From Candidatus Avelusimicrobium pullarium (lineage in GTDB: Bacteria > Elusimicrobiota > Elusimicrobia > Elusimicrobiales > Elusimicrobiaceae), in contig CALUTQ010000002.1 in NCBI GenBank assembly GCA_944323745.1, forward strand, positions 186,001 through 250,000: a stretch of DNA of 64,000 nucleotides, read 5' to 3'. Both the position numbers and the translations under genes were made by a program. Numbering within the stretch: the first letter of the stretch is position 1; every line of letters begins with the position of its first letter. Positions 5,492-61,832 of the stretch are shown piece after piece. The notes below the pieces were generated by a model. That model did no database searches, was not told where the DNA came from, and was given only the letters and a program-made list of their open reading frames with translations.

Positions 5492-6097
5492 CTACGGCAG
5501 ATAATACCAACCTGATTTGTTGACTGATTCGGTTCCGCCTAAAGACAAACATACCTTTTTGGCATAAGCCAAAGCTTCTTCAGGAACGCCGCCTGCGGCA
5601 GAAGCACGGCAATTAGGAGAAAACCCCATAACTCCTTCTCCCACTCCTTCGCGATAAGGGACTGTATAAGGCTCTACATACGTAGCACAGCCGGGAGCAT
5701 ACTTTGGACATTTTTTAACTGTGGCGATTATACCGTGATAACTTCTAGACACATCTAATCGGGCATCAGGACAATCCAAAGTATCATAGGAATAAGAAGA
5801 GTTTGCAATATATATGCATCCATTTGGGAATTGTATATCCAAATCTCTAATATCATCTGCATATTTCCCATTAGCCATATAATACACTTCTTGGGCATTA
5901 CGTATGGAATGTACCCACGAACGCACTGTATTAAAACGCGTTTTATAAACAGACATCTGATATTGCGGCAAAGCAATAGCGGCCAAAATGCCGATAATCA
6001 ACACTACTACCAAAAGTTCTATCAGCGTAAAGCCGCCAAATTTGCCCTTGGCGGGAATAATATTGAAAGAAATGTTTTTTTGATAAATTTTGCTCAT
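5492..6097 (-). CDS. Type IV pilin-like protein with palindromic start region (copy A)
   Basis: The 201-residue product carries a prepilin cleavage site GG^FTLIE preceded by an unusually long leader of 22 residues (MSKIYQKN...). The hydrophobic helix [20 protein letters not shown] follows, with Glu5 of the mature protein, then ALPQYQ. The C-terminal domain has several Cys and is unlike the other copies. The ATG at 6097 is preferred because it sits at the same place in all six copies. No Shine-Dalgarno is present; the promoter overlaps the start. The product should be processed by prepilin peptidase and assembled into pili or pseudopili. Confidence 0.9.
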   Translation of the reverse strand: MSKIYQKNISFNIIPAKGKFGGFTLIELLVVVLIIGILAAIALPQYQMSVYKTRFNTVRSWVHSIRNAQEVYYMANGKYADDIRDLDIQFPNGCIYIANSSYSYDTLDCPDARLDVSRSYHGIIATVKKCPKYAPGCATYVEPYTVPYREGVGEGVMGFSPNCRASAAGGVPEEALAYAKKVCLSLGGTESVNKSGWYYLP

Positions 6098-6131
6098 AGG
6101 CAAAATTTATCAAAAAAAAAAAACAATGCAA
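6075..6131 (-). promoter_or_regulatory. Pilin promoter A: T-tract spacer and start-codon palindrome
   Basis: On the minus strand -35 TTGCAT (6131-6126) is followed by a 16-bp spacer that includes T12, then TGA-TAAATT (-10 at 6109-6104), 6 nt and the ATG. A perfect inverted repeat with 19-bp arms (6075-6093 and 6100-6118) encloses the start codon in a 6-nt centre. The downstream arm encodes SKIYQK. Confidence 0.7.
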
Positions 6132-7569: not shown

Positions 7570-7741
7570 GGGAATTCACTATACTCATTTAGCACACAGA
7601 AGTTTTTTCATAGAGCAAAAAAATAAGATTTTCCGCATTTAAAATGAAACGATTTCCATAGAAACGAGATAAATTTTATTTGTATTCTTACGGCAAGTGA
7701 CACTAAAAACTCAAATATTTCTATCTTATTAGTTTAAATTA

Positions 7742-7780
7742 ACAAAAGACTCTCTTTTGCCATAAAAGAGAGTCTTTTGT
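7742..7780. terminator. Strong hairpin between asnS and the first surface paralogue
   Basis: A perfect stem of 18 bp (ACAAAAGACTCTCTTTT and its complement) closes a short loop. T-rich flanks are on both sides, so it could stop transcripts from either direction. The rest of the 289-bp intergenic stretch 7522-7810 is A+T-rich and shows no gene. Confidence 0.6.
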
Positions 7781-7810
7781 TCTGGATAGTTATAAATAAG
7801 AATATAGGTT

Positions 7811-8773
7811 TTACCAACCGTTTTTAAAAGGTTCACAAGAGCCCTGGTATTCATCTACGGTATCAAAACCAGCATCCACTATTGCACAGCGATCTCCTTC
7901 AACACAAGAGCCTTGGCAAGAGTCCATAGAAGATCCACAACCATTCCCGTAACAAGATCCTCCACCGACATATTCTATTTCCCAGTCCCAGTACCAACAA
8001 TCGGCATCAGAAGTAGAAGTATTGGGACAGCATTCACTCTTATGAGCCAGCTTATAAGTTCTGTCACTGCAACTGCAGTCATCTATACTGCAGGCACTCC
8101 AAGCACCCCATTTCCCTGTAGAAGTATCACATTTACGGGTTCTTACGCCAGCATTATTACAACCACAAGACTCTGAGCTTAGGCCAGAACAAGGAATTGT
8201 CGCTTTCTCCCCTTCGCCGCAGACTAAAAAGACGCCTTTACCGCCATTTATCGTCAATTGGCTCCATTCCATTTTGTTATTGGTCGCGTCACAGGCGGGA
8301 AAGCGGCGGCCCGAAGCGGGACTAAACAAATACAAATCTGTCATATCGGCTCGTTTGGTCGCTTCGGCAGATTGTATGGTTGCTCCCTCTATCGTATCCA
8401 CCGTCAAATCGTGTGCAAATTCCAGCACGCCCGGCGCTACTACTTGCGCTCCACCCGAACGACGGCTGAATAAAGTATCCGTGGCAATTTCCGAAGACGA
8501 TTTGGACGAATTCAACGCCAAGACGCCTCTGCTAACAATTAAATTGCCCGTATTTAACGCGCGTGAATCGGAAGACAATTTATAAACCGACAGTTTCTCC
8601 CCCGCGTCCAACGTACAATTGCCTAATAATCCCACGTCGCACGTGCCGGTTACACCTAAGTCCCCGTATGAGGCATAAGGCACCGGAAAATACGTCACCA
8701 TTTTAATATTGTCTGCCACAGCAAACGGCGCGGCAGCCATAAAACCCAAAAGGGCAAAAAGAATTTTTTTCAT
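7811..8773 (-). CDS. Secreted TYFPVPYASY-family protein, paralogue 1 (TSP1-like segment)
   Basis: The 320-residue product has a signal peptide ending AVA-DN. Residues 21 to about 190 form a conserved domain starting NIKMVTYFPVPYASYGDLGV and ending VFLVCGEG, almost identical in the two following genes. The C-terminal 130 residues are Cys-rich. They include GVRTRKC...WGAWSACSIDDC, which has the W-x-x-W and Cys spacing of thrombospondin type 1 repeats, then an unrelated Cys-rich tail. The start at 8773 has a GGAAGG ribosome site; an extension upstream would precede the signal peptide and is unlikely. Export is clear; function is unknown, perhaps surface adhesion. Confidence 0.85.
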   Translation of the reverse strand: MKKILFALLGFMAAAPFAVADNIKMVTYFPVPYASYGDLGVTGTCDVGLLGNCTLDAGEKLSVYKLSSDSRALNTGNLIVSRGVLALNSSKSSSEIATDTLFSRRSGGAQVVAPGVLEFAHDLTVDTIEGATIQSAEATKRADMTDLYLFSPASGRRFPACDATNNKMEWSQLTINGGKGVFLVCGEGEKATIPCSGLSSESCGCNNAGVRTRKCDTSTGKWGAWSACSIDDCSCSDRTYKLAHKSECCPNTSTSDADCWYWDWEIEYVGGGSCYGNGCGSSMDSCQGSCVEGDRCAIVDAGFDTVDEYQGSCEPFKNGW

Positions 8774-9034: not shown

Positions 9035-10276
9035 TTAACCGCAGCAAGTAACTTCCCTATACTGAACGGTTTCTTGGCAGGTTCCTGGCTGATAGAAATA
9101 TTTAGTTTCGCTTTTTTCACACGAAATTTGTCTGTAAAATCCGCGCTGTATAGCCTCGCTGCAGCCTAAACTGGATATCGAACTGCCTTCTACCAGAATT
9201 ATAGTATTTATGCTTCCTGTGCCATACATAGCACAGTAGCGATCGGCCATACTATCCACACCGGTGGTTATATTCTGGTTATAAAGTACTTTTACATTGT
9301 TAACAATAACACCCGGTCTAAGAGCTTCCGGCCCATTATATTCATAACGACCGGCACCGGCAGGGCAAGACCACGTAAACGATAATTCTGCGCTGATAGA
9401 GTTATTGGAAGAAGAGGAAGATGTATCCGGATACACATCAATACACGTTTCCGCGGGGCAAACAGACGGACTGGTTGAAAATTTGGCTTCTCTGTTTCCG
9501 TCACAGGTATCTTTAACAGAACTGTCAGCCGTGTATCCTTGGCCGGAATAAGAAAACTTAGCTTGCAGCACTCTGGTAATATCCATACACGTGCCAGAAA
9601 ACCCGTTACTGCAGTTGTAAAGTGCATTTTTATTGGATACAGGACACGTTTCCGTTACATCTGAACCGTATCCTGTCCGGATAGTTCCGTAACTCGGTTG
9701 ACACGCCGAGACCCCTTCGCCGCAAACCAAAAAGACACCTTTATCGCCATTTATCGTCAATTGGCTCCATTCCATTTTGTTATTGGTCGCGTCGCAGGCG
9801 GGAAAGCGGCGGCCCGAAGCGGGACTAAACAAATACAAATCTGTCATATCGGCTCGTTTGGTCGCTTCGGCAGATTGTATGGTTGCTCCCTCTATCGTAT
9901 CCACCGTCAAATCGTGTGCAAATTCCAGCACGCCCGGCGCTACTACTTGCGCTCCACCCGAACGACGGCTGAATAAAGTATCCGTGCCAATTTCCGAAGA
10001 TGATTTGGACGAATTTAACGCCAAGACGCCTCTATTGGCAATTAAACTGCCCGTGTTTAACGCGCGTGAATCGGAAGACAATTTATAAACCGACAGTTTC
10101 TCCCCCGCGTCCAACGTACAATTGCCCAATAACCCCACGTCGCACGTGCCGGTTACACCCAAGTCCCCGTACGAGGCATAAGGCACCGGAAAATACGTCA
10201 CCATTTTAATATTGTCTGCCACAGCAAACGGCGCGGCAGCCATAAAACCCAAAAGGGCAAAAAGAATTTTTTTCAT
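9035..10276 (-). CDS. Secreted TYFPVPYASY-family protein, paralogue 2
   Basis: The 413-residue product has the same signal peptide and the same domain to VFLVCGEG at about residue 190 as its neighbours, with very few substitutions. The C-terminal 220 residues differ completely from paralogues 1 and 3. They contain about 20 Cys, a Ser-rich run (SSSSSNN) and end CCG, which suggests a disulfide-rich extracellular domain. A ribosome site (GAGGACGGGG) precedes the ATG. The promoter region, GACCTATACTATAAATAG, is shared with paralogue 3. Function unknown. Confidence 0.85.
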   Translation of the reverse strand: MKKILFALLGFMAAAPFAVADNIKMVTYFPVPYASYGDLGVTGTCDVGLLGNCTLDAGEKLSVYKLSSDSRALNTGSLIANRGVLALNSSKSSSEIGTDTLFSRRSGGAQVVAPGVLEFAHDLTVDTIEGATIQSAEATKRADMTDLYLFSPASGRRFPACDATNNKMEWSQLTINGDKGVFLVCGEGVSACQPSYGTIRTGYGSDVTETCPVSNKNALYNCSNGFSGTCMDITRVLQAKFSYSGQGYTADSSVKDTCDGNREAKFSTSPSVCPAETCIDVYPDTSSSSSNNSISAELSFTWSCPAGAGRYEYNGPEALRPGVIVNNVKVLYNQNITTGVDSMADRYCAMYGTGSINTIILVEGSSISSLGCSEAIQRGFYRQISCEKSETKYFYQPGTCQETVQYREVTCCG

Positions 10277-10416: not shown

Positions 10417-11457
10417 TCAAAACAAAGCCTTAGCTTCACAGACCCATTCATAAGGCACCATCAGACAACTATCTCCCACACTATAATATCCGTCGCGCAA
10501 TTCATCTTGGCAAATGGAAAAAGAAGAAGATGTCTTTGCTAACGGATTAGACGAACAATCATTTTCCGTATAGTCTTCACATTTAGAAACCGTTGTTCCT
10601 GAACTTTCCCACCGAGTGGAACAATCGGAACCCCATCTGTCCCCAACACTACCTTGTCTCCAATACAGAGTCCAAGAATAACAATCCGCATCTGTATAAG
10701 GTTGGCCAATACAGCATTCACTCTTATGGGCCAGTTTATAAGTTCTGTCGCTGCAACCGCAATCATCTATACTGCAGGAGCTCCAAGCACCCCAGTTACC
10801 TGTAGAAGTATTGCACTCACGGGTTCTGACTCCCGCATTATTACAGCCGCAGGGCTCTGAACTATTGCCAGAACAAGCGAGTTCAATTTTTTCCCCTTCG
10901 CCGCAGACCAAAAAGACACCTTTACCGCCATTTATCGTCAATTGGCTCCATTCCATTTTGTTATTGGTCGCGTCGCAGGCGGGAAAGCGGCGGCCCGAAG
11001 CGGGACTAAACAAATACAAATCTGTCATATCGGCTCGTTTGGTCGCTTCGGCAGATTGTATGGTTGCTCCCTCTATCGTATCCACCGTCAAATCGTGTGC
11101 AAATTCCAGCACGCCCGGCGCTACTACTTGCGCTCCACCCGAACGACGGCTGAATAAAGTATCCGTGCCAATTTCCGAAGATGATTTGGACGAATTTAAC
11201 GCCAAGACGCCTCTATTGGCAATTAAACTGCCCGTATTTAACGCGCGTGAATCGGAAGACAATTTATAAACCGACAGCTTCTCCCCCGCGTCCAACGTAC
11301 AATTGCCTAATAATCCCACGTCGCACGTGCCGGTTACACCCAAGTCCCCATATGAGGCATAAGGCACCGGGAAATACGTCACCATTTTAATATTGTCTGC
11401 CACAGCAAACGGCGCGGCAGCCATAAAACTCAAAAGGGCAAAAAGACATTTTTTCAT
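10417..11457 (-). CDS. Secreted TYFPVPYASY-family protein, paralogue 3 (TSP1-like segment)
   Basis: The 346-residue product begins with a signal peptide (one Lys-Cys change from the others) and the shared domain of about 170 residues. The next 65 residues match paralogue 1 (CGCNNAGVRTREC, WGAWSSCSIDDC, DRTYKLAHKSECC). The last 90 residues are private and Cys-rich. So paralogues 1 and 3 share two modules while paralogue 2 shares only the first. The GAGGACGGGAAT ribosome site and TATACTATAAATAG promoter match paralogue 2. Export is clear; function unknown. Confidence 0.85.
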   Translation of the reverse strand: MKKCLFALLSFMAAAPFAVADNIKMVTYFPVPYASYGDLGVTGTCDVGLLGNCTLDAGEKLSVYKLSSDSRALNTGSLIANRGVLALNSSKSSSEIGTDTLFSRRSGGAQVVAPGVLEFAHDLTVDTIEGATIQSAEATKRADMTDLYLFSPASGRRFPACDATNNKMEWSQLTINGGKGVFLVCGEGEKIELACSGNSSEPCGCNNAGVRTRECNTSTGNWGAWSSCSIDDCGCSDRTYKLAHKSECCIGQPYTDADCYSWTLYWRQGSVGDRWGSDCSTRWESSGTTVSKCEDYTENDCSSNPLAKTSSSFSICQDELRDGYYSVGDSCLMVPYEWVCEAKALF

Positions 11458-14417: not shown

Positions 14418-14957
14418 ATGAAAAAAGCCGGTTTTTTTAGTGTTGTTCTTTCTCTTTTTACCCTGATGTTCGCAGCCGTCCCGGGCGCCAATGCACTATG
14501 TTATGCCGACAGCTCGCGCGAAGCGGCTATGTATATTGACCAGCAAACCGACGTGCCGGAAGTGTCCGACGAAGAAATTTACCTGCTGCAGCAGGCGTTT
14601 GCTGCCGGTCTGCAAACCATAGACGCGCATACCTATACCAACAGCCTGACGGAACAGGACAAAGAAATTCTGCAGCTGCTCGATGTTACCATTCCCGCCA
14701 TTATCAATAAAGTAAAAACCTCCATTACCGACGTGGAAGAAGAACTGATGAAAGCCAACGAAACGCTGGCACGCAAAATAGTGGCCAACCAAAACCTTTA
14801 CCCCGCGCCGACCCGTTGGGACGTGGCCGCTATGTTTGCTTCCACTACCTCTTTAATGCACGCAATGATGAGCGGCAAAATTGACGAAGGCGTGGCGGAA
14901 ATTCTGATGAATGAAAGTATGCAAATGCTGCAGGACATGCTGCCGCAGGAAGAATAG
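14418..14957 (+). CDS. Small secreted helical protein, unknown function
   Basis: The product has 179 residues with a signal peptide probably cleaved after ANA (about residue 26). The mature part is acidic and almost wholly helical in character, with Met-rich segments (MFASTTSLMHAMM, MQMLQDMLPQEE). There is no transmembrane segment after the signal and no recognisable motif. A strong AGGAGG ribosome site precedes the ATG. It is a single gene with its own GGYC-array promoter and terminator, divergent from lon. Confidence 0.8.
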   Translation: MKKAGFFSVVLSLFTLMFAAVPGANALCYADSSREAAMYIDQQTDVPEVSDEEIYLLQQAFAAGLQTIDAHTYTNSLTEQDKEILQLLDVTIPAIINKVKTSITDVEEELMKANETLARKIVANQNLYPAPTRWDVAAMFASTTSLMHAMMSGKIDEGVAEILMNESMQMLQDMLPQEE

Positions 14958-22710: not shown

Positions 22711-23250
22711 TTATTGCAAAGGAATATTAAAAGCAACAACGCCCCCCACATCACTGCGGCGGGGCCAATTTAAGACATTTTCAAAAAATTCTACATCTTT
22801 CTCGTTATATACCTGACAATAGGCTGGTATATCTCTATTGCCGTAGCAGACACGGCAAGTAATCAGCCCTTTAAAGTGTTGTGTATGCCAAATACAAGGA
22901 GGGACCTGTAAATCATTCCATACGTCTTTACCAAATTTTCCCGTCAATTGCCCATTTTCAAGGAAAGATTCGCTAAAACCGACATCGGCATCAAAATCGC
23001 TGGCAACCTGCGCATAATTTCCGTTAGCCATAAGATACAATTGGGCGGCACGACGAATGCTATTAGCCTGTATTTGCGTATGCATCATACGTGATTTACG
23101 CACTGCTTTTTCATATCTCGGCAAAGCAACAGCCGCCAATATGCCAATAATTAGCACCACCACCAAAAGTTCAATGAGCGTAAAGCCGCCAAAATGGCGT
23201 TTAACGAGTTTTTTTACGTCAGAAATGTTTTTTTGATAAATTTTGCTCAT
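22711..23250 (-). CDS. Type IV pilin-like protein with palindromic start region (copy B)
   Basis: The 179-residue product has the leader MSKIYQKN...HFGG^[20 protein letters not shown] and continues ALPRYEKAVRKSR. The middle carries LYLMANGNYAQ, the counterpart of the YYMANG motif in other copies. The C-terminal domain is its own sequence with three Cys. The ATG at 23250 is in the centre of the palindrome. It lies between uvrA and ybaK, convergent with uvrA. Confidence 0.9.
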   Translation of the reverse strand: MSKIYQKNISDVKKLVKRHFGGFTLIELLVVVLIIGILAAVALPRYEKAVRKSRMMHTQIQANSIRRAAQLYLMANGNYAQVASDFDADVGFSESFLENGQLTGKFGKDVWNDLQVPPCIWHTQHFKGLITCRVCYGNRDIPAYCQVYNEKDVEFFENVLNWPRRSDVGGVVAFNIPLQ

Positions 23251-23284
23251 ACGCAAAATTTATCAAAAAAAAAAAACAATACAA
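23228..23284 (-). promoter_or_regulatory. Pilin promoter B: T-tract spacer and start-codon palindrome
   Basis: On the minus strand -35 TTGTAT (23284-23279), a 16-bp spacer with T12, TGATAAATT, 6 nt and the ATG. Arms of 19 bp (23228-23246, 23253-23271) flank the start codon. Confidence 0.7.
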
Positions 23285-23326
23285 GGCCTTTCTGAAAACA
23301 CCTTCTGAAAATCTTATAATTTATTT

Positions 23327-23809
23327 ATGAAAGACAAAATTCACAAAACCAACGCCGCGCGCCACTTGGACGAATTGGGCATTCATTATGAATTAATTTC
23401 CTACGAGGTGGACGAAGAAAACCTCAGCGCCCAGCACGTGGCCCAGTCGTTGGGACAAAATTTGCAACAGGTATACAAAACGCTGGTGCTGAAAGGAGAC
23501 AAAACCGGCTTTTTCGTCTGCGTTATTCCGGGGGCGGACGAACTGGACTTAAAGGCCGCCGCGCGCGCAAGCGGCAACAAAAGCTGTGAAATGCTGCACG
23601 TCAAAGACCTTATGCCCGTTACCGGCTACATTCGCGGCGGCTGCAGCCCGCTGGGGATGAAGAAACATTTCCCTACGTTTGTGCACGAAGACTGCATTCT
23701 GTGGGACTTTATTTATGTCAGCGCAGGCAAACGCGGCTTGCAGTTAAAAATACATCCGCAGGATCTGCTGCGCGCCGCCGGCGCCCAAACCGCCGCCTTA
23801 ACGGCGTAA
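23327..23809 (+). CDS. ybaK: YbaK/EbsC-type aminoacyl-tRNA deacylase
   Basis: The 160-residue product belongs to the YbaK family, which removes Cys mischarged onto tRNA-Pro. Family features are the KTNAARHLDELGI start, VYKTLVLKGD near residue 47, and GYIRGGCSPLG near 100. It is a single-domain protein. TATAAT lies at 23315-23320, exactly 6 nt before the ATG, and there is no Shine-Dalgarno sequence; the mRNA should be leaderless. The promoter lies back to back with pilin promoter B. Confidence 0.92.
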   Translation: MKDKIHKTNAARHLDELGIHYELISYEVDEENLSAQHVAQSLGQNLQQVYKTLVLKGDKTGFFVCVIPGADELDLKAAARASGNKSCEMLHVKDLMPVTGYIRGGCSPLGMKKHFPTFVHEDCILWDFIYVSAGKRGLQLKIHPQDLLRAAGAQTAALTA

Positions 23810-33529: not shown

Positions 33530-34081
33530 TTACCACAATTTATACACATTGGCGGTATTGGTGCGGCTGCTGGGTGCGCTAAGTCCGCTTAAGTTTTTGC
33601 ATACGCGGTTGGCAAATTCCTCATCATTTCCGTCTTCGGCATAACAACGGGCAGAGTTTTTCCCGCCAACCCAATAAAAATAATACAAGCCCACGCCGTG
33701 CACTCTGTCATCGCCCCCCACAATATATTGTCCCTCATCCAAGTGGGCGCGGGCGGTCCCTTGTTTATCAAAATAACACCAGTTTTGATGAGCGCCCGTT
33801 CCGTAGGCGGAGCAGGAAACGTCCAAATCGTGAATGTCTGTGGCAAACTCGCCGTTAGCCATATAATATCTTTCCTGTGCCTGCTGCAGGCTGCGCATCA
33901 TCGGTATTAAGGCACTCAGCCGCGCCTTGGCTACCGCCATTTCGTATTGCGGCAGAGCGATGGCGGCCAGTATGCCGATAATCAGCACCACGACCAAAAG
34001 TTCAATAAGCGTAAAGCCGCCTAATTTACCTTTAGCGGCGTTTTTACGACGGGAAAATGATTTTTGATAAATTTTGTTCAT
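33530..34081 (-). CDS. Type IV pilin-like protein with palindromic start region (copy C)
   Basis: The 183-residue product starts [14 protein letters not shown], has KLGG^[20 protein letters not shown] and ALPQYEMAVAKARL, then RYYMANGEF. Its first 62 or so codons are virtually identical in DNA to copy D next door, after which the two diverge completely (only a final KNLSG/ASLTG-type Cys segment is reminiscent). No Shine-Dalgarno. The T tract in its promoter is the longest of the six (14). Confidence 0.9.
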   Translation of the reverse strand: MNKIYQKSFSRRKNAAKGKLGGFTLIELLVVVLIIGILAAIALPQYEMAVAKARLSALIPMMRSLQQAQERYYMANGEFATDIHDLDVSCSAYGTGAHQNWCYFDKQGTARAHLDEGQYIVGGDDRVHGVGLYYFYWVGGKNSARCYAEDGNDEEFANRVCKNLSGLSAPSSRTNTANVYKLW

Positions 34082-34117
34082 AGTCAAAATTTATCAAAAA
34101 AAAAAAAAATGAGTCAA
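34061..34117 (-). promoter_or_regulatory. Pilin promoter C: T14 spacer and start-codon palindrome
   Basis: On the minus strand -35 TTGACT (34117-34112), an 18-bp spacer with T14, TGATAAATT, 6 nt and the ATG. Arms of 16 bp (34061-34076, 34085-34100) flank an 8-nt centre with the start codon. Confidence 0.7.
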
Positions 34118-34154: not shown

Positions 34155-34685
34155 TTATTTCCACAAAATATATCCCCAATTGGAAGCATTGCGAGAAGGG
34201 TTTACATCTCCCGTCAAACTGGCGCATACCCGACGGGCAAATTCTTCGTTTTCACCGTCATAAGCATAACAAGCGGCAAAAGATAGATCTGTAAAATAAA
34301 AAATCAATAAGACGCCCGGTATCCGATCATCATTACCTTGCACGTATGTCGTGGATAATTGTAGTCTTTGATGTTCTTGTACTATACAACGGTTTGGACT
34401 TGCCAAATTAACACGACAAGCGGCATCCAAATCTCTCAAATCATTCGTGTACTCGCCGTTAGCCATATAATATCTTTTCTGCGCCTGCTGCAGGCTGCGC
34501 ATCATCGGTATTAAGGCACTCAGCCGCGCCTTGGCTACCGCCATTTCGTATTGCGGCAGAGCGATGGCGGCCAGTATGCCGATAATCAGCACCACGACCA
34601 AAAGTTCAATAAGCGTAAAGCCGCCTAATTTACCTTTAGCGGCGTTTTTACGACGGGAAAATGATTTTTGATAAATTTTGTTCAT
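34155..34685 (-). CDS. Type IV pilin-like protein with palindromic start region (copy D)
   Basis: The 176-residue product is identical to copy C through [14 protein letters not shown], the cleavage site GG^FTLIE, the helix and ALIPMMRSLQQAQ, then differs from KRYYMANGEYTNDL on. It has four Cys in the variable part. It lies 73 bp upstream of copy C in the same direction; no terminator separates them, and each has its own promoter palindrome. Confidence 0.9.
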   Translation of the reverse strand: MNKIYQKSFSRRKNAAKGKLGGFTLIELLVVVLIIGILAAIALPQYEMAVAKARLSALIPMMRSLQQAQKRYYMANGEYTNDLRDLDAACRVNLASPNRCIVQEHQRLQLSTTYVQGNDDRIPGVLLIFYFTDLSFAACYAYDGENEEFARRVCASLTGDVNPSRNASNWGYILWK

Positions 34686-34719
34686 AGTCAAAATTTATCA
34701 AAAAAAAAAAATGAGTCAA
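34665..34719 (-). promoter_or_regulatory. Pilin promoter D: T12 spacer and start-codon palindrome
   Basis: On the minus strand -35 TTGACT (34719-34714), a 16-bp spacer with T12, TGATAAATT, 6 nt and the ATG. Arms of 16 bp (34665-34680, 34689-34704). Confidence 0.7.
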
Positions 34720-34783: not shown

Positions 34784-35257
34784 TTACGGCTGGGATGTGG
34801 TATAAATATTCATTGATTTACAAATGCCGATAGCGGCATTATTGTCGCCGTTGCAGGCGAGCGTACGTTTGCCGTTTACCGCCGAGCCGTAGGGGTTCCA
34901 AATACGGTAAACGTCTCCGCCCAAACGTTCGGCTACCACGCCGGGGCAGCCCGTACCGGGCACTTGTGCGTGGGTAGCGCCCTTTAATTTATATCTAAAA
35001 TACTTACTTTGCACTTCCGTATCGGATATTTTGGTACCGGGAAGTTCTACCAATAATTTGGAAAAAGCCGGCGGGCAGGACGCTCTTTCCGCCGCGTATG
35101 CATAAATGGCGTCGTTTATGGCTTTGACCATATTCATCGCTTCCGTTGCACGCGATTTTTCAATACTGCGCATATAATTAGGCAAAGCAATAGACGACAA
35201 AATGCCTATAATAATCACCACAATCAGCATTTCCACCAACGTAAAACCTTTTTTCAT
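34784..35257 (-). CDS. Type IV pilin-like protein, canonical short leader
   Basis: The 157-residue product has the ordinary short leader MKKG^FTLVEMLIVVIIIGILSSIA and Glu5. The C-terminal domain has Cys and ends YTTSQP. Unlike the palindrome-type copies it has a clear ribosome site (AAAGGAG, 8 nt before the ATG) and no palindrome. The start is 11 bp after the dapL stop, so it is read as the last gene of the dapF-dapL operon. Pairing a pilin with lysine/murein precursor genes has no obvious reason. Confidence 0.9.
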   Translation of the reverse strand: MKKGFTLVEMLIVVIIIGILSSIALPNYMRSIEKSRATEAMNMVKAINDAIYAYAAERASCPPAFSKLLVELPGTKISDTEVQSKYFRYKLKGATHAQVPGTGCPGVVAERLGGDVYRIWNPYGSAVNGKRTLACNGDNNAAIGICKSMNIYTTSQP

Positions 35258-37387: not shown

Positions 37388-37399
37388 TAAAATAAATTG
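37388..37399 (+). promoter_or_regulatory. uppS leaderless promoter -10
   Basis: TAAAAT at 37388-37393 is followed by 6 nt and the ATG at 37400. No Shine-Dalgarno sequence is present between them. Confidence 0.55.
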
Positions 37400-38095
37400 A
37401 TGACACAACAAGCCAACCCTTTGCCCAAACACATCGCCATCATTATGGACGGCAACGGCCGCTGGGCCGCCAGCCGCGCACTGCCGCGTTCGGCCGGCCA
37501 CCGCGAAGGGGCCAAAGCCGTGCAGCGCACCATAGAAGCGGCCGAAAAAATGGGCCTTAAATATCTTACGCTTTATGCCTTTTCTACGGAAAACTGGTCC
37601 CGTCCGCAAGACGAAATTGACACCCTGATGAATTTGCTGGAAAAAACGCTGGACGAATACCAAAAATCGGCCCGCAAAAAAGATTTGCGCATTTTAATCA
37701 GCGGCGAACGGGAACATTTGCGCGCCGACATTTTGGCCAAAATGGATGCCTTGGTGGCAGACACGGCGCAAAACAAGGGTTTAAGCGTCAATTTGGCTTT
37801 AAACTACGGTGCCCGACAGGAAATCGCCCACGCCGTCAACCGCCTGCTGGCGCAGGGCGTTAAAACCGTTACCCCGCAAGATATTTCGCTAAACTTATAC
37901 CAGCCCGAAATGCCCGACCCCGAACTGATTATCCGCACGTCGGGCGAAGAACGCCTTTCCAACTTTTTGCTTTGGCAGGCCGCTTACAGCGAGTTTTATT
38001 TTACCCCCGTGCTGTGGCCCGATTTTAACGAAGAAGAACTGCAAAAAGCCGTAGACAACTACCGCGCGCGCAAACGGCGCTTTGGCGGCATTTAA
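37400..38095 (+). CDS. uppS: Undecaprenyl diphosphate synthase (isoprenyl transferase)
   Basis: The 231-residue cis-prenyltransferase makes the C55 lipid carrier for murein and O-antigen. Motifs are HIAIIMDGNGRWA (catalytic Asp), AGHREGAKAV, LTLYAFSTENWSRP and the C-terminal RTSGEERLSNFLLWQ...SEFYF. The ATG at 37400 is used; a TTG directly before it is in frame. The 3' end and terminator are copied a second time at 38815-38915 on the far side of a pilin gene. Confidence 0.96.
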   Translation: MTQQANPLPKHIAIIMDGNGRWAASRALPRSAGHREGAKAVQRTIEAAEKMGLKYLTLYAFSTENWSRPQDEIDTLMNLLEKTLDEYQKSARKKDLRILISGEREHLRADILAKMDALVADTAQNKGLSVNLALNYGARQEIAHAVNRLLAQGVKTVTPQDISLNLYQPEMPDPELIIRTSGEERLSNFLLWQAAYSEFYFTPVLWPDFNEEELQKAVDNYRARKRRFGGI

Positions 38096-38180: not shown

Positions 38181-38750
38181 TTATTGGAACTCACAACCGA
38201 AATTGCCGCTTCCCCATACCTGCGTTAATACAGATACGCCGCAAAGACTCTTGCAAACTCGGGAAGCCAAATCATTTCCGTCTGATTTATTTTGTGTAGA
38301 ACATATTACCCCTCTTTTTTTCCATTCTGTGGGGCCCCCTCCATTTTTCAAGACTTTAGAGATAGTATAAACATTCTTACCGTTCTGCTTTTTTACCACT
38401 ATGATTTGAACATCTCTATATCTATAATAAGAAAAATCATCTACAGTAGGCATAGAAATATCTAACACAGAAAAATCAATTGGTTTATACTCATCAGAGG
38501 TACTGTCCAAACCATAATTCCCGTTAGCCATATAATAGCGTTCATAAGCGTCAGCAATGGCTTTAACCGCTATTACCCCTTGCATAGCACGGCTCTTTTC
38601 TGCCGCCAGTTGATACTGCGGCAAAGCCACCGCCGCCAATATACCGATAATTAAAACGACGACTAAAAGTTCAATAAGCGTAAAGCCGCCAAATTTGCTT
38701 TTAGCGGCATTTTTACAACAAGAGAATGATTTTTGATAAATTTTGTTCAT
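38181..38750 (-). CDS. Type IV pilin-like protein with palindromic start region (copy E), inside direct repeats
   Basis: The 189-residue product starts [14 protein letters not shown] with SKFGG^[35 protein letters not shown] and [11 protein letters not shown]. Its C-terminal domain is unlike the other copies, with two Cys. The gene and its promoter lie between two perfect 101-bp repeats of the uppS end, the best evidence here that a pilin gene arrived as a unit. The TTTATAACCCC junction begins 10-15 bp past its stop. Confidence 0.92.
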
Positions 38751-38784
38751 AGCCAAAATTTATCAAAAAAAAAAAATGAGTCAA
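38730..38784 (-). promoter_or_regulatory. Pilin promoter E: T12 spacer and start-codon palindrome
   Basis: On the minus strand -35 TTGACT (38784-38779), a 16-bp spacer with T12, TGATAAATT, 6 nt and the ATG. Arms of 16 bp (38730-38745, 38754-38769). Confidence 0.7.
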
Positions 38785-46372: not shown

Positions 46373-46891
46373 TTACCAATAGGTGGCATAATCTACCCAC
46401 GGATAGGTTGTATCCGTACTGTAACTTAAACAAATTTGTTTGTATAAATCGGAGCCGTAGCCGTTGCAAACAAACTTTCCGCGGGCCACTTCCGGGCAGG
46501 TATTGTCTTCCGCTCCATTGGCAAACTGATAACAGCGATTTATATCGGGGCCGGCACCGCCATAACTCACTTTATTAGCCCAAAGAGTAAAACTGCTATG
46601 GGGTTCCAGTCCTTGCGTTTCCCAGTCAATATCCAAATCGTCTTTATTGGTCGTATAATGTCCGTTTGCCATATAAAAGCGCTCCTGGGCTTCTTGTATG
46701 GCTTTAAGCTGTGGCAATACGCGGCCGATACGCGCTTTAATGACCGCTTTTTGATACTGCGGCAAAGCTACCGCCGCCAATATGCCGATAATTAAAACGA
46801 CAACCAAAAGTTCAATCAGCGTAAACCCGTTAAATTTGCGTTTTGCAGGGTTTTTTACGTCGGGAATGTTTTTTTGATAAATTTTGCTCAT
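46373..46891 (-). CDS. Type IV pilin-like protein with palindromic start region (copy F)
   Basis: The 172-residue product starts MSKIYQKNIPDVKN with KFNG^[35 protein letters not shown], then RFYMANGHYTTN and a variable domain with four Cys ending VDYATYW. It lies between pyrG (convergent) and pbpC. No Shine-Dalgarno. The AAT-Gly cleavage context (N-G^F) differs from the GG^F of other copies. Confidence 0.9.
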   Translation of the reverse strand: MSKIYQKNIPDVKNPAKRKFNGFTLIELLVVVLIIGILAAVALPQYQKAVIKARIGRVLPQLKAIQEAQERFYMANGHYTTNKDDLDIDWETQGLEPHSSFTLWANKVSYGGAGPDINRCYQFANGAEDNTCPEVARGKFVCNGYGSDLYKQICLSYSTDTTYPWVDYATYW

Positions 46892-46926
46892 AAGCAAAAT
46901 TTATCAAAAAAAAAAAAACAATGCAA
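46869..46926 (-). promoter_or_regulatory. Pilin promoter F: T13 spacer and start-codon palindrome
   Basis: On the minus strand -35 TTGCAT (46926-46921), a 17-bp spacer with T13, TGATAAATT, 6 nt and the ATG. Arms of 19 bp (46869-46887, 46894-46912). Confidence 0.7.
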
Positions 46927-56474: not shown

Positions 56475-56939
56475 ATGAATAAAGGTTTTACTCTTTTGGA
56501 ACTTTTGGTTGTGGTAATGATTATGGGTTTGCTTACCTCCTTTGCCATTCCGCAGTACACCCGCAGCGTGCGCAGAGCCGAAATGCTGGAAGGAATGAGC
56601 CAAGGCAAAACGATTTTTGATTCTGCCCTGCGCTATAAATCGGCCAACGGGTCTATGCCTTCTTATTTTAATGAACTGGACATCGGTTTTGCCGGTCTCA
56701 ATACGGCCAGCAGCTCTATGACCGAAGGCAACTTTACCTATCAGCTGCTGACCGACGGGGTAAAAATCGTCAGCAATGTGGGCGGATATTACCTTAAAAT
56801 GCAAATTCCCACCGTCTCAAACAGCGGGGTCTCGGTACCGGTTTACTGCTGCCCCACCAACGGGGACAAAAACGGAACCTGGCTCTGCAAAAGTGTAAGC
56901 GGGGGCGTGCTGGGCGGCGGATGTTACGAAATTAAATAA
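56475..56939 (+). CDS. Type IV pilin-like protein, canonical short leader
   Basis: The 154-residue product has leader MNKG^FTLLELLVVVMIMGLLTSFA with Glu5 and the following IPQYTRSVRRAE. The C-terminal domain holds a CC pair and two more Cys. It has a conventional promoter, a 5' leader and an AAGGAG site, unlike the palindrome-type pilins. It is the only pilin gene of the window on the plus strand. Confidence 0.92.
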   Translation: MNKGFTLLELLVVVMIMGLLTSFAIPQYTRSVRRAEMLEGMSQGKTIFDSALRYKSANGSMPSYFNELDIGFAGLNTASSSMTEGNFTYQLLTDGVKIVSNVGGYYLKMQIPTVSNSGVSVPVYCCPTNGDKNGTWLCKSVSGGVLGGGCYEIK

Positions 56940-60662: not shown

Positions 60663-60677
60663 TGATAAAATAGTGCT
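60663..60677 (+). promoter_or_regulatory. Leaderless extended -10 promoter of the FtsA-like gene
   Basis: TGATAAAAT (-10 TAAAAT 60666-60671) is followed by 6 nt and the ATG. No Shine-Dalgarno sequence is seen. Confidence 0.6.
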
Positions 60678-61832
60678 ATGAGTCAAAACTATATAGCCTT
60701 GGATTTTGGCAGCGGCAAAATTTCTGCCGTGCTGAGCGTCTATGACGAAAACACGGGCACCTGCCGCGTGCGCCACGCCGCGGCCGAAACTTGCCCCAGC
60801 GTCAGCGCCTGCTATATTTTAGATTTTGACAAAACCGTACGCGCCCTCAACCGCCTTTTTGCGCGCCTGAACGAATATGTTTCCTTTACGCCTACGGTGG
60901 TGGTCGGCCTGCGCGGAGATTTTTTAAGCTTTCGCCGCTCGGGCGGTTTTCAGCCCATTGCCGGCAAAGACCGTATTATTACCGAGCAAGACGTCCGCGC
61001 CGCGCTGGACAATTCCGTTCCGGCTAATTTAGACGAAAATCTGGACGTGGTGGACCTCTTGCCGCAAAGCTTTACCGTAGACGGCAAAACCGGCGTGCAA
61101 AACCCCGTCGGGCTGGCGGCCAACTGTCTGGATGCGGAAACCTTTATTTCTATGGGGCTTAAAACCCATTTAACCAATTTAAACCGCGTGCTGGCCGCGG
61201 CCGGCTGCGAAGATTTTGAAGCCGTACCCACCGTGCTGGCATTATGCGACACGCTGTTAAAACCCGAAGAAAAACAAAACAACGTTATTCTGTTGGATAT
61301 CGGCGCGGCCAATTCGTCGGCGGCGCTGTACCACAAAGGCCTGCTGGAAGGCGCCTGGGAGCTGCCTTTTGGGGCCGACATTATTGTGCAGGAAGTAGCC
61401 GATGTGCTGCAAAACGACTTGCCTTCCACCCGCAGTCTGCTTAAAGAGTACGCCTACGGAGACGACGAAATTATGGACGACGTGCTTGATGACGCCGCCG
61501 TCAAACTGCTAAAAGCAATAAAAAAAGAACTGTTGCAGACGCTTTGTTTTATTAAATATCCCCCTTCCCAAGCCGTGCTTTGCGGCGGCGGGGCGGACAT
61601 TAACGTTAAAAACGCCGCCAAAAACATATTAAACCTGCGCCGCGCGCGCCTGGCCGCGCACGACGACCTGATTGCCGACAGCGAAGACCTGCTCTCCCCC
61701 GGCTACACTTCGGCCCTTTCGCTGGTATTATATTCCCAAAAACACGGCAGCACGTACGAGCAGCAGCCTTCCTTAAAAGGCAAAGCGGCCGGTTTTTTTG
61801 ACCGCGTGCTTTCCAAACTGGGGCTCAATTAA
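60678..61832 (+). CDS. FtsA-like actin-fold protein
   Basis: The 384-residue protein follows the FtsA layout: phosphate-1 loop YIALDFGSGKISAVLSV, the SHS2-like region with PTVVVGLRGDFLSF, then LLPQSFTVDGKTGVQNPVGL, a hallmark of FtsA. The phosphate-2 loop, usually DIGGGTTD, reads DIGAANSSAALY, so the nucleotide site is altered. A C-terminal GFFDRVLSKLGL could be the amphipathic membrane helix. ftsZ is not adjacent. It may be the division protein of this lineage or a diverged paralogue. Confidence 0.78.
   Translation: MSQNYIALDFGSGKISAVLSVYDENTGTCRVRHAAAETCPSVSACYILDFDKTVRALNRLFARLNEYVSFTPTVVVGLRGDFLSFRRSGGFQPIAGKDRIITEQDVRAALDNSVPANLDENLDVVDLLPQSFTVDGKTGVQNPVGLAANCLDAETFISMGLKTHLTNLNRVLAAAGCEDFEAVPTVLALCDTLLKPEEKQNNVILLDIGAANSSAALYHKGLLEGAWELPFGADIIVQEVADVLQNDLPSTRSLLKEYAYGDDEIMDDVLDDAAVKLLKAIKKELLQTLCFIKYPPSQAVLCGGGADINVKNAAKNILNLRRARLAAHDDLIADSEDLLSPGYTSALSLVLYSQKHGSTYEQQPSLKGKAAGFFDRVLSKLGLN

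What the first reader, a model, noticed from the sequence alone, without database searches (positions are those of the whole stretch)
23315..23329. Many genes have the -10 box 5-6 nt before the ATG and no ribosome site: leaderless transcription
ybaK (TATAAT-N6-ATG), hydG (TGcTATGAT-N6), uppS (TAAAAT-N6), dapF (TACAAT-N6), lpxL (TGcTATAAT-N5), the FtsA-like gene (TGaTAAAAT-N6) and the six pilins (TGaTAAATT-N6) share this layout. Transcription would begin at or within a base or two of the start codon. Other genes here have clear Shine-Dalgarno sites and normal leaders, so two initiation classes coexist, and the leaderless class tends to use extended -10 promoters without good -35 boxes.
Basis: partly seen in the sequence, partly recalled or inferred. 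Interest (0 to 1): 0.65.

Follow-up and report, generated by a model that had tools for sequence, protein, structure and literature searches.

The report
Leaderless genes and a translated promoter
In a gut bacterium of the Elusimicrobiaceae, roughly one gene in ten appears to begin its messenger RNA exactly at the start codon, and dozens of pilin genes share one mirror-symmetric cassette that seems to be promoter, start site and first codons at once.

Summary
In 464 kb of this genome, TANNNT ends exactly 6 nt before the start codon in 36 of 346 non-pilin genes, against about 9 at other spacings; 928 genes of other phyla show no such excess (10, background 21.8). In the pooled family set, genes with the box rarely have Shine-Dalgarno sites (6/108 versus 662/990) and often a TG-extended -10 (43/108 versus 54/990). 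In whole genomes, the 6-nt spacing outnumbers an 8-nt one in 26/26 Elusimicrobiaceae but 1/43 genomes outside the class. This adds a lineage to a known kind (Zheng 2011). The surprise is the pilins: all six start inside a dyad centred on the presumed start site, its left arm the -10 box, its right arm codons 2-8. The promoter pattern occurs 61 times in this genome. Codons 3-7 are synonymously frozen, the arms covary beyond shuffles, and several sister species carry the same promoter and dyad as an untranslated leader with a Shine-Dalgarno site. My reading is an operator that has become coding sequence; its regulator is unknown.

The parts
23315..23329 (+). ybaK: TATAAT, 6 nt, ATG (presumed start site = A of ATG)
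   Evidence: gene identity
26799..26816 (+). hydG: TGcTATGAT, 6 nt, ATG
   Evidence: N6 box also in L110-L112
37323..37337 (-). dapF: TACAAT, 6 nt, ATG; divergent from uppS
   Evidence: N6 in 12 of 17 genus dapF starts, 0 of 10 outside the genus
37388..37402 (+). uppS: TAAAAT, 6 nt, ATG
   Evidence: N6 in L108-L112
40171..40187 (+). lpxL: TGcTATAAT, 5 nt, ATG
   Evidence: N5 not enriched genome-wide, homologue in L109 has N6
60663..60680 (+). FtsA-like gene: TGaTAAAAT, 6 nt, ATG
6075..6118 (-). pilin cassette 1: dyad over -10, presumed start site and codons 2-8 (ATG at 6097)
23228..23271 (-). pilin cassette 2 (ATG at 23250; -35 TTGTAT at 23279-23284)
34061..34100 (-). pilin cassette 3 (ATG at 34081)
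34665..34704 (-). pilin cassette 4 (ATG at 34685)
38730..38769 (-). pilin cassette 5 (ATG at 38750)
46869..46912 (-). pilin cassette 6 (ATG at 46891; arms 20 bp)
34784..35257 (-). contrast: pilin-like gene with Shine-Dalgarno (aaaggag), without cassette
56475..56939 (+). contrast: pilin-like gene with Shine-Dalgarno (aaggag), without cassette

Best explanation
Two initiation classes coexist. In about 8% of non-pilin genes here beyond chance (4-11% across the family sets), plus dozens of pilins, a sigma-70-type -10 box (often TG-extended) ends exactly 6 nt before ATG, so RNA polymerase starts at the A of AUG and the mRNA has no leader; 70S ribosomes with initiator tRNA then take up the 5'-terminal AUG (this translation step is inferred from known biology). 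In the pilin family the same layout (TTG, about 16 nt holding a T tract, TGATAAATT-N6-ATG) is overlaid by a dyad whose axis lies between the A and T of ATG. The left arm is the -10 box; the right arm is the first codons. I infer that the dyad is an operator for a dimeric regulator that gates the pilin genes together, and that the start codon came to lie on the start site, so the operator half is translated as an extended prepilin leader. Shown here: spacing, Shine-Dalgarno loss, dyad, covariation, synonymous freeze, leadered sister forms. Inferred: the start site, operator function, the regulator, the direction of the change. The confidence given is for leaderless transcription; for the operator I would give about 0.45.
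For: N6 peak of 36/346 non-pilin genes against about 9 expected, and 10/928 with a background of 21.8 in other phyla. SD 6/108 versus 662/990; T at -1 98/108 versus 559/990; TG 43/108 versus 54/990. Whole-genome pattern counts: N6 exceeds N8 in 26/26 Elusimicrobiaceae, 1/43 outside the class. dapF N6 in 12/17 genus starts. Pilins: 61 matches of the promoter-ATG pattern in this genome, none in the reversed control; all 41 that lie in held stretches open into pilins (40 by motif, the last by reading). -35 spacing 16 in 69/94. Of 106 T-tract promoters in held sequence, 27 do not have ATG at N6; 11 of these have a dyad arm of 8 or more, of which 8 (from 7 genomes) are leadered forms and 3 are near-leaderless. 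Dyad axis 6.5 nt after the -10 in 76 of 79 with ATG at N6. Codons 3-7: synonymous identity 0.95-1.00 in 45 own paralogues, against 0.28-0.79 in the GFTLIEL region of the same genes, one all-TTT codon apart. Double changes that keep the pair: 31 cells versus shuffle mean 13.7, maximum 23 (67 rows); 25 versus 10.4, maximum 17, after dropping 5 rows without GAT in the left arm, and 10 versus 1.2, maximum 7, outside the one commonest pair (500 shuffles each). One pilin (L025) has a leader shifted by one base yet keeps the arm's DNA.
Against: No 5' end has been measured. Starts come from my own caller, with a prior favouring ATG. In the genus stretches the N6 excess is smaller (38/615, ratio 2.4), and in the genus of G104 it is weak (6/41, P 0.02). 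T at -1 is also common beside chance boxes at other spacings. For the operator: no regulator or autoregulated gene was found; the family's dyads that I could examine lie at pilin starts. Some pilin-like genes keep a -10 at N6 without the dyad (L068, one each in L019 and L021), and L067 has the box at N5 without the dyad. G066 holds two matched arm versions, which a single regulator would not predict. Of the 31 covarying cells 16 are at one pair (-3/+4), several come from rows without a dyad, and rows share descent.
Confidence: 0.88

Rival explanations
1. Leaderless transcription is right, but the pilin dyad has no protein partner: the -10 box alone is selected, and template-switch (quasi-palindrome) correction copies the left arm into the right one.
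For: Right-only deviations (106) outnumber left-only (22), so the left arm is the constrained one; two matched arm versions in one genome, G066. The correction mechanism itself is recalled, not looked up.
Against: Leadered dyads of other sequence persist at the same axis in several genomes, and codons 3-7 are frozen across 45 paralogues, which a sporadic correction process would have to achieve repeatedly. Rates of such correction here are unknown.
Confidence: 0.25
2. The dyad acts as RNA: transcription starts further upstream and both arms are in the mRNA, a stem with AUG in its loop (or before the Shine-Dalgarno site in leadered forms).
For: Perfect arms of 16-20 bp with AUG in the loop; covariation.
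Against: The left arm is itself a TG-extended -10 at 16 nt from a -35; some sister species carry the same promoter about 70-75 nt upstream of the ATG; some members keep TANNNT-N6-ATG without the dyad.
Confidence: 0.08
3. Symmetric promoter: the mirrored -10 in the right arm drives a convergent antisense transcript that tunes the pilin.
For: The right arm read backwards is also TGATAAATT after a T run.
Against: No mirrored -35 was seen; variants with a broken right arm are common (right-only deviations 106).
Confidence: 0.08
4. The -10-like boxes near ATG are chance in AT-rich upstream regions and the genes use other promoters.
For: TANNNT is short; about 9 of the 36 N6 cases in this genome are expected by chance.
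Against: Sharp single-spacing peak, loss of SD, no excess in 928 genes of other phyla.
Confidence: 0.04

Closest known systems
Leaderless (TA-led) genes of Actinobacteria, Deinococcus-Thermus, Lactococcus and others (Zheng 2011, PMC3160421; passages and section 7 read)
   Same: TANNNT about 12 bp upstream of the start, no SD, TG before the box in several low-GC genomes
   Different: Elusimicrobiota are not among the groups named there (one genome is called unclassified); here one exact spacing and about 4-11% of non-pilin genes beyond chance
GeneMarkS-2 class of bacteria with leaderless transcription (as described in PMC9581028, passages read)
   Same: SD and leaderless genes in one genome; 21.6% of bacterial species predicted so
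   Different: the term elusimicrobi does not occur in that paper's main text; the original GeneMarkS-2 paper was not read
Operators overlapping the -10 and start site (general knowledge, recalled)
   Same: dyad across -10 to about +20
   Different: half of it is coding sequence and it recurs at dozens of dispersed genes; no regulator known
Homopolymer-tract phase-variable promoters (recalled)
   Same: T tract in the -35/-10 spacer
   Different: the tract is exactly 12 T in 68 of 94 cases and the spacing is 16 in 69 of 94

Membership tests
Leaderless bacterial genes | -10 box placed so that the start site falls on the start codon | tested here: met
   36/346 non-pilin at N6 versus about 9 background; 12/17 genus dapF
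Leaderless bacterial genes | no Shine-Dalgarno site | tested here: met
   6/108 versus 662/990
Leaderless bacterial genes | AUG start | tested here: met
   108/108 versus 990/1094; my caller's prior favours ATG
Leaderless bacterial genes | mapped 5' end at the start codon | not testable with these tools
   no RNA data
Transcription-factor operator | conserved dyad at a fixed place relative to the promoter | tested here: met
   axis at 6.5 nt after the -10 in 76 of 79 with ATG at N6, 6.0-7.0 in the 11 others with a dyad
Transcription-factor operator | cognate regulator binds it | not tested
   no candidate found
Phase-variable homopolymer promoter | tract length varies between copies or cells | tested here: inconclusive
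   T12 in 68 of 94 pilins, other lengths in the rest; no population data
Tyrosine-recombinase (dif-like) site | two arms around a conserved 6-nt core | tested here: not met
   6-nt core often present but its sequence varies around ATG
5' mRNA hairpin | both arms transcribed | tested here: inconclusive
   left arm reads as the -10 box; no 5' ends

The most novel reading that the evidence does not exclude
A pilin family spread through a genus is run by one cassette of about 60 bp in which a start-site-centred operator doubles as coding sequence: placing the start codon on the start site turned a regulatory 5' leader into an extended prepilin leader, so the first seven or so amino acids are dictated by regulatory DNA. 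The 61 matches in one 1.6-Mb genome would answer to a single regulator.
Probability: 0.4. Interest if true: 0.7.

Novelty: new variant of a known kind. Interest (0 to 1): 0.5.

Why it matters
It adds Elusimicrobiaceae to the bacteria with a sizeable leaderless class and shows where in the phylum it is seen (the family and, less strongly, one further family of its order; not in the families sampled outside the class), which affects gene-start annotation. The pilin family gives leadered and leaderless forms of one promoter in sister species, so the change between the two can be studied directly, and it looks like a case of regulatory DNA fixing protein sequence.

Tried and rejected
Tyrosine-recombinase site: the 6-nt core varies, so rejected. 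Phase variation by the T tract: length is too uniform to claim. Search for a regulator by looking for dyads away from pilins: 98 dyads, 6 without a motif match within 400 nt. Of the six, L012 and L207 open into pilins with a variant motif and L022 into a broken pilin start; L063 is a pilin locus; L018 and L226 look by eye like chance AAATTT palindromes without T tract. Ribosomal protein S1: a short homologue below the family cut-off; no conclusion.

Papers: 9 searches counted. Leaderless + Elusimicrobi gave 2 papers: of PMC10783764 I read passages (anti-SD types; nothing on leaderless genes of this phylum in what I saw); PMC7448276 in the listing only. Elusimicrobi + transcription start site gave 4, Elusimicrobi + pilin 14, Avelusimicrobium 2, Elusimicrobium minutum + genome 78 (12 listed), leaderless + pilin 40 (15 listed): listings with the starts of abstracts only, nothing describing this cassette seen there. 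Most subscription papers are not held, so absence in print is not shown.

Limits of the counts. The 20 own-genome stretches were chosen because they hold dyad sites; pilin-like genes were removed before gene counts, but the sample is not random. One search counts 37 of 345 and one search counts 36 of 346: the pilin filter differs, and one pilin counted as non-pilin is left out. Orthologues recur among the pooled 108, so they are not independent. In one search, 27 of 30 dapF loci could be parsed. In one search, three of the 27 called leadered are near-leaderless (CTG at N6 in G007; ATG at N7 and N5 in G066), and L070 was missed by the pattern although one search shows its dyad. In one search the printed line 'f1 39' wrongly includes f10-f19; the per-family lines give 26 of 26 for f1. 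The script printed nothing and was replaced; one search found only the window because the loci were stored in one file.

Full report
What was checked. The other named genes have the layouts described, and the names hold: YbaK, HydG, DapF and UppS score over NCBIfam cut-offs; the acyltransferase and the FtsA-like gene pass only Pfam models. The window lies in a 1,615,768-base genome in two contigs. The best matches to its DapF in the named collection are uncultured Elusimicrobiales and Elusimicrobiaceae genomes, several with gut sources in their titles; records of the genome itself may be left out there.

Is it more than chance? I called genes with a codon-usage script that does not look upstream, over the window and 20 stretches (464 kb). 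Counting TANNNT by its distance to the chosen start gives one sharp peak at 6 nt: 36 of 346 non-pilin genes, against 6 at N5, 8 at N7 and a mean of 9.0 at N12-55. The peak recurs in genus stretches (38/615, background 15.6), named family loci (34/241, 6.9), one other genus of the family (10/68, 2.6) and an order-level family (9/101, 2.4), and weakly in a third genus (6/41, 2.1, P 0.02). It is not seen in 928 genes of other phyla (10, background 21.8), in f8 (1/81), f9 (1/64) or f12-f19 (3/117); class-level relatives are inconclusive (2/71) (all).

Independent of any gene caller, the pattern TGNTANNNT-N6-ATG was counted in 79 whole genomes of the phylum and compared with N8. N6 exceeds N8 in 26 of 26 Elusimicrobiaceae (141 versus 41 in this genome, pilins included) and in 1 of 43 genomes of families f8 to f19. 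Families f2 to f7 are mixed (f2 ratio 0.93-1.97).

Features of the class. In the pooled Elusimicrobiaceae set (1,098 non-pilin ATG genes, 108 with the N6 box): SD of 4 or more bases in 6/108 versus 662/990; T at -1 in 98/108 versus 559/990, as expected for a pyrimidine-purine start site; TG before the box in 43/108 versus 54/990. T at -1 is also frequent beside chance boxes at other spacings, so it is weaker evidence than the SD loss. About 9 of the 36 boxes in this genome are expected by chance, so single genes are not certain. Orthologues share the state: dapF has the N6 box in 12 of 17 genus starts and 0 of 10 outside the genus (27 of 30 loci parsed); uppS has it in L108-L112 and hydG in L110-L112.

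The pilins. All six window pilins start inside an inverted repeat of 16-20-bp perfect arms with ATG in its 4-8-nt loop. The left arm holds TGATAAATT; a TTG lies 16 nt before the box in 69 of 94 pilins of this class. The exact dyad core occurs 30 times in this genome and in 6 of 41 genomes searched, this one included, with no match to the reversed control. The promoter pattern with ATG at N6 matches 61 times in this genome; 41 of these lie in held stretches and all open into pilins, 40 by motif and one by reading. The T-tract promoter pattern has at least one match in 42 of 61 genus genomes and the leaderless pattern in 35 of 61; G076 has 94 of the first and 2 of the second.

What the dyad is under. 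In 45 own paralogues, codons 3-7 (KIYQK) show synonymous identity 0.95-1.00, while the equally conserved GFTLIEL stretch of the same genes varies (0.28-0.79, one all-TTT phenylalanine codon apart). Across 67 distinct sequences, 31 cells keep the pair through changes on both sides, against a shuffle mean of 13.7 and maximum of 23; pairing is 83.5% against 79.7%. Sixteen of the 31 are at one pair and several come from rows without a dyad. After dropping 5 rows without GAT in the left arm the count is 25 against 10.4 (maximum 17), and outside the commonest pair 10 against 1.2 (maximum 7). Clear cases are TACATTTTG/CAAAATGTA in G066 and TAGATTTTA/TAAAATCTA in G072. Related rows are not independent.

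Leadered sisters. Of 106 T-tract promoters in held sequence, 27 do not have ATG at N6. Eleven of these have a dyad arm of 8 or more at the same axis: three are near-leaderless (G007 with CTG, two in G066 with ATG at N7 or N5) and eight, from seven genomes, are leadered, in most with an SD-like site before an ATG further down (G016, G067, G063, G023, G049, G048, L114 twice). Others (L108-L110, G060) have no such dyad and a leader of about 70-75 nt. So the same promoter serves leadered and leaderless pilins. This supports reading the left arm as the -10 box and hence a start site at ATG in the leaderless form.

Mechanism. Leaderless transcription is the best reading (0.88). For the dyad I favour an operator over the start site (about 0.45); rivals are quasi-palindrome correction, an RNA stem and a symmetric promoter. 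No regulator was found, and a decayed pilin copy (L022) still holds an intact dyad.

Comparison. Zheng 2011 (PMC3160421, passages and section 7 read) describes TANNNT about 12 bp upstream as the mark of leaderless bacterial genes and lists groups without this phylum. PMC9581028 (passages) reports leaderless transcription predicted in 21.6% of bacterial species. The housekeeping class is therefore a new member of a known kind; the translated dyad is the variant.

Noticed in passing
G000 whole genome; window pilins of this class all on - strand: Pilins of this class are all oriented the same way within a replichore: 45 of 45 in held stretches versus 182 of 346 other genes (Fisher 3e-12); the switch was set from the pilins themselves, but GC skew changes sign with it in 21 of 21 stretches. 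The 61 pattern matches agree. Cause unknown.
   Followed up: partly
G000, G011, G076: Very large pilin families: 91 scored matches in this genome (91 is the most scored in any genome) from 109 first-look candidates; up to 250 candidates in one relative of 1.7 Mb.
   Followed up: no
L031 about 8304-8333 (G007): A pilin cassette with CTG in place of ATG at the presumed start site and the frame open into GFTLIEL.
   Followed up: no
L025, pilin at 14545 (- strand): The leader reads MEKFIKK instead of MSKIYQK, shifted by one base, yet the DNA AAATTTATCAAAAAAA of the arm is kept.
   Followed up: partly
L022 about 9267 (G000:C2:471265): An intact dyad at a pilin start whose frame soon ends, apparently a decayed pilin copy.
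   Followed up: partly
window 9035-10276 and 10417-11457: Two neighbouring genes with nearly identical upstream regions and first codons, apparently a tandem duplication.
   Followed up: no
window 7741-7781: Perfect 18-bp inverted repeat with a 5-nt loop; terminator not tested.
   Followed up: no
G000:C1:736440-737441: Ribosomal protein S1 homologue is short (399-aa open frame, 204 bits, below the rpsA cut-off; 12 of the 14 control genomes are also below it).
   Followed up: no
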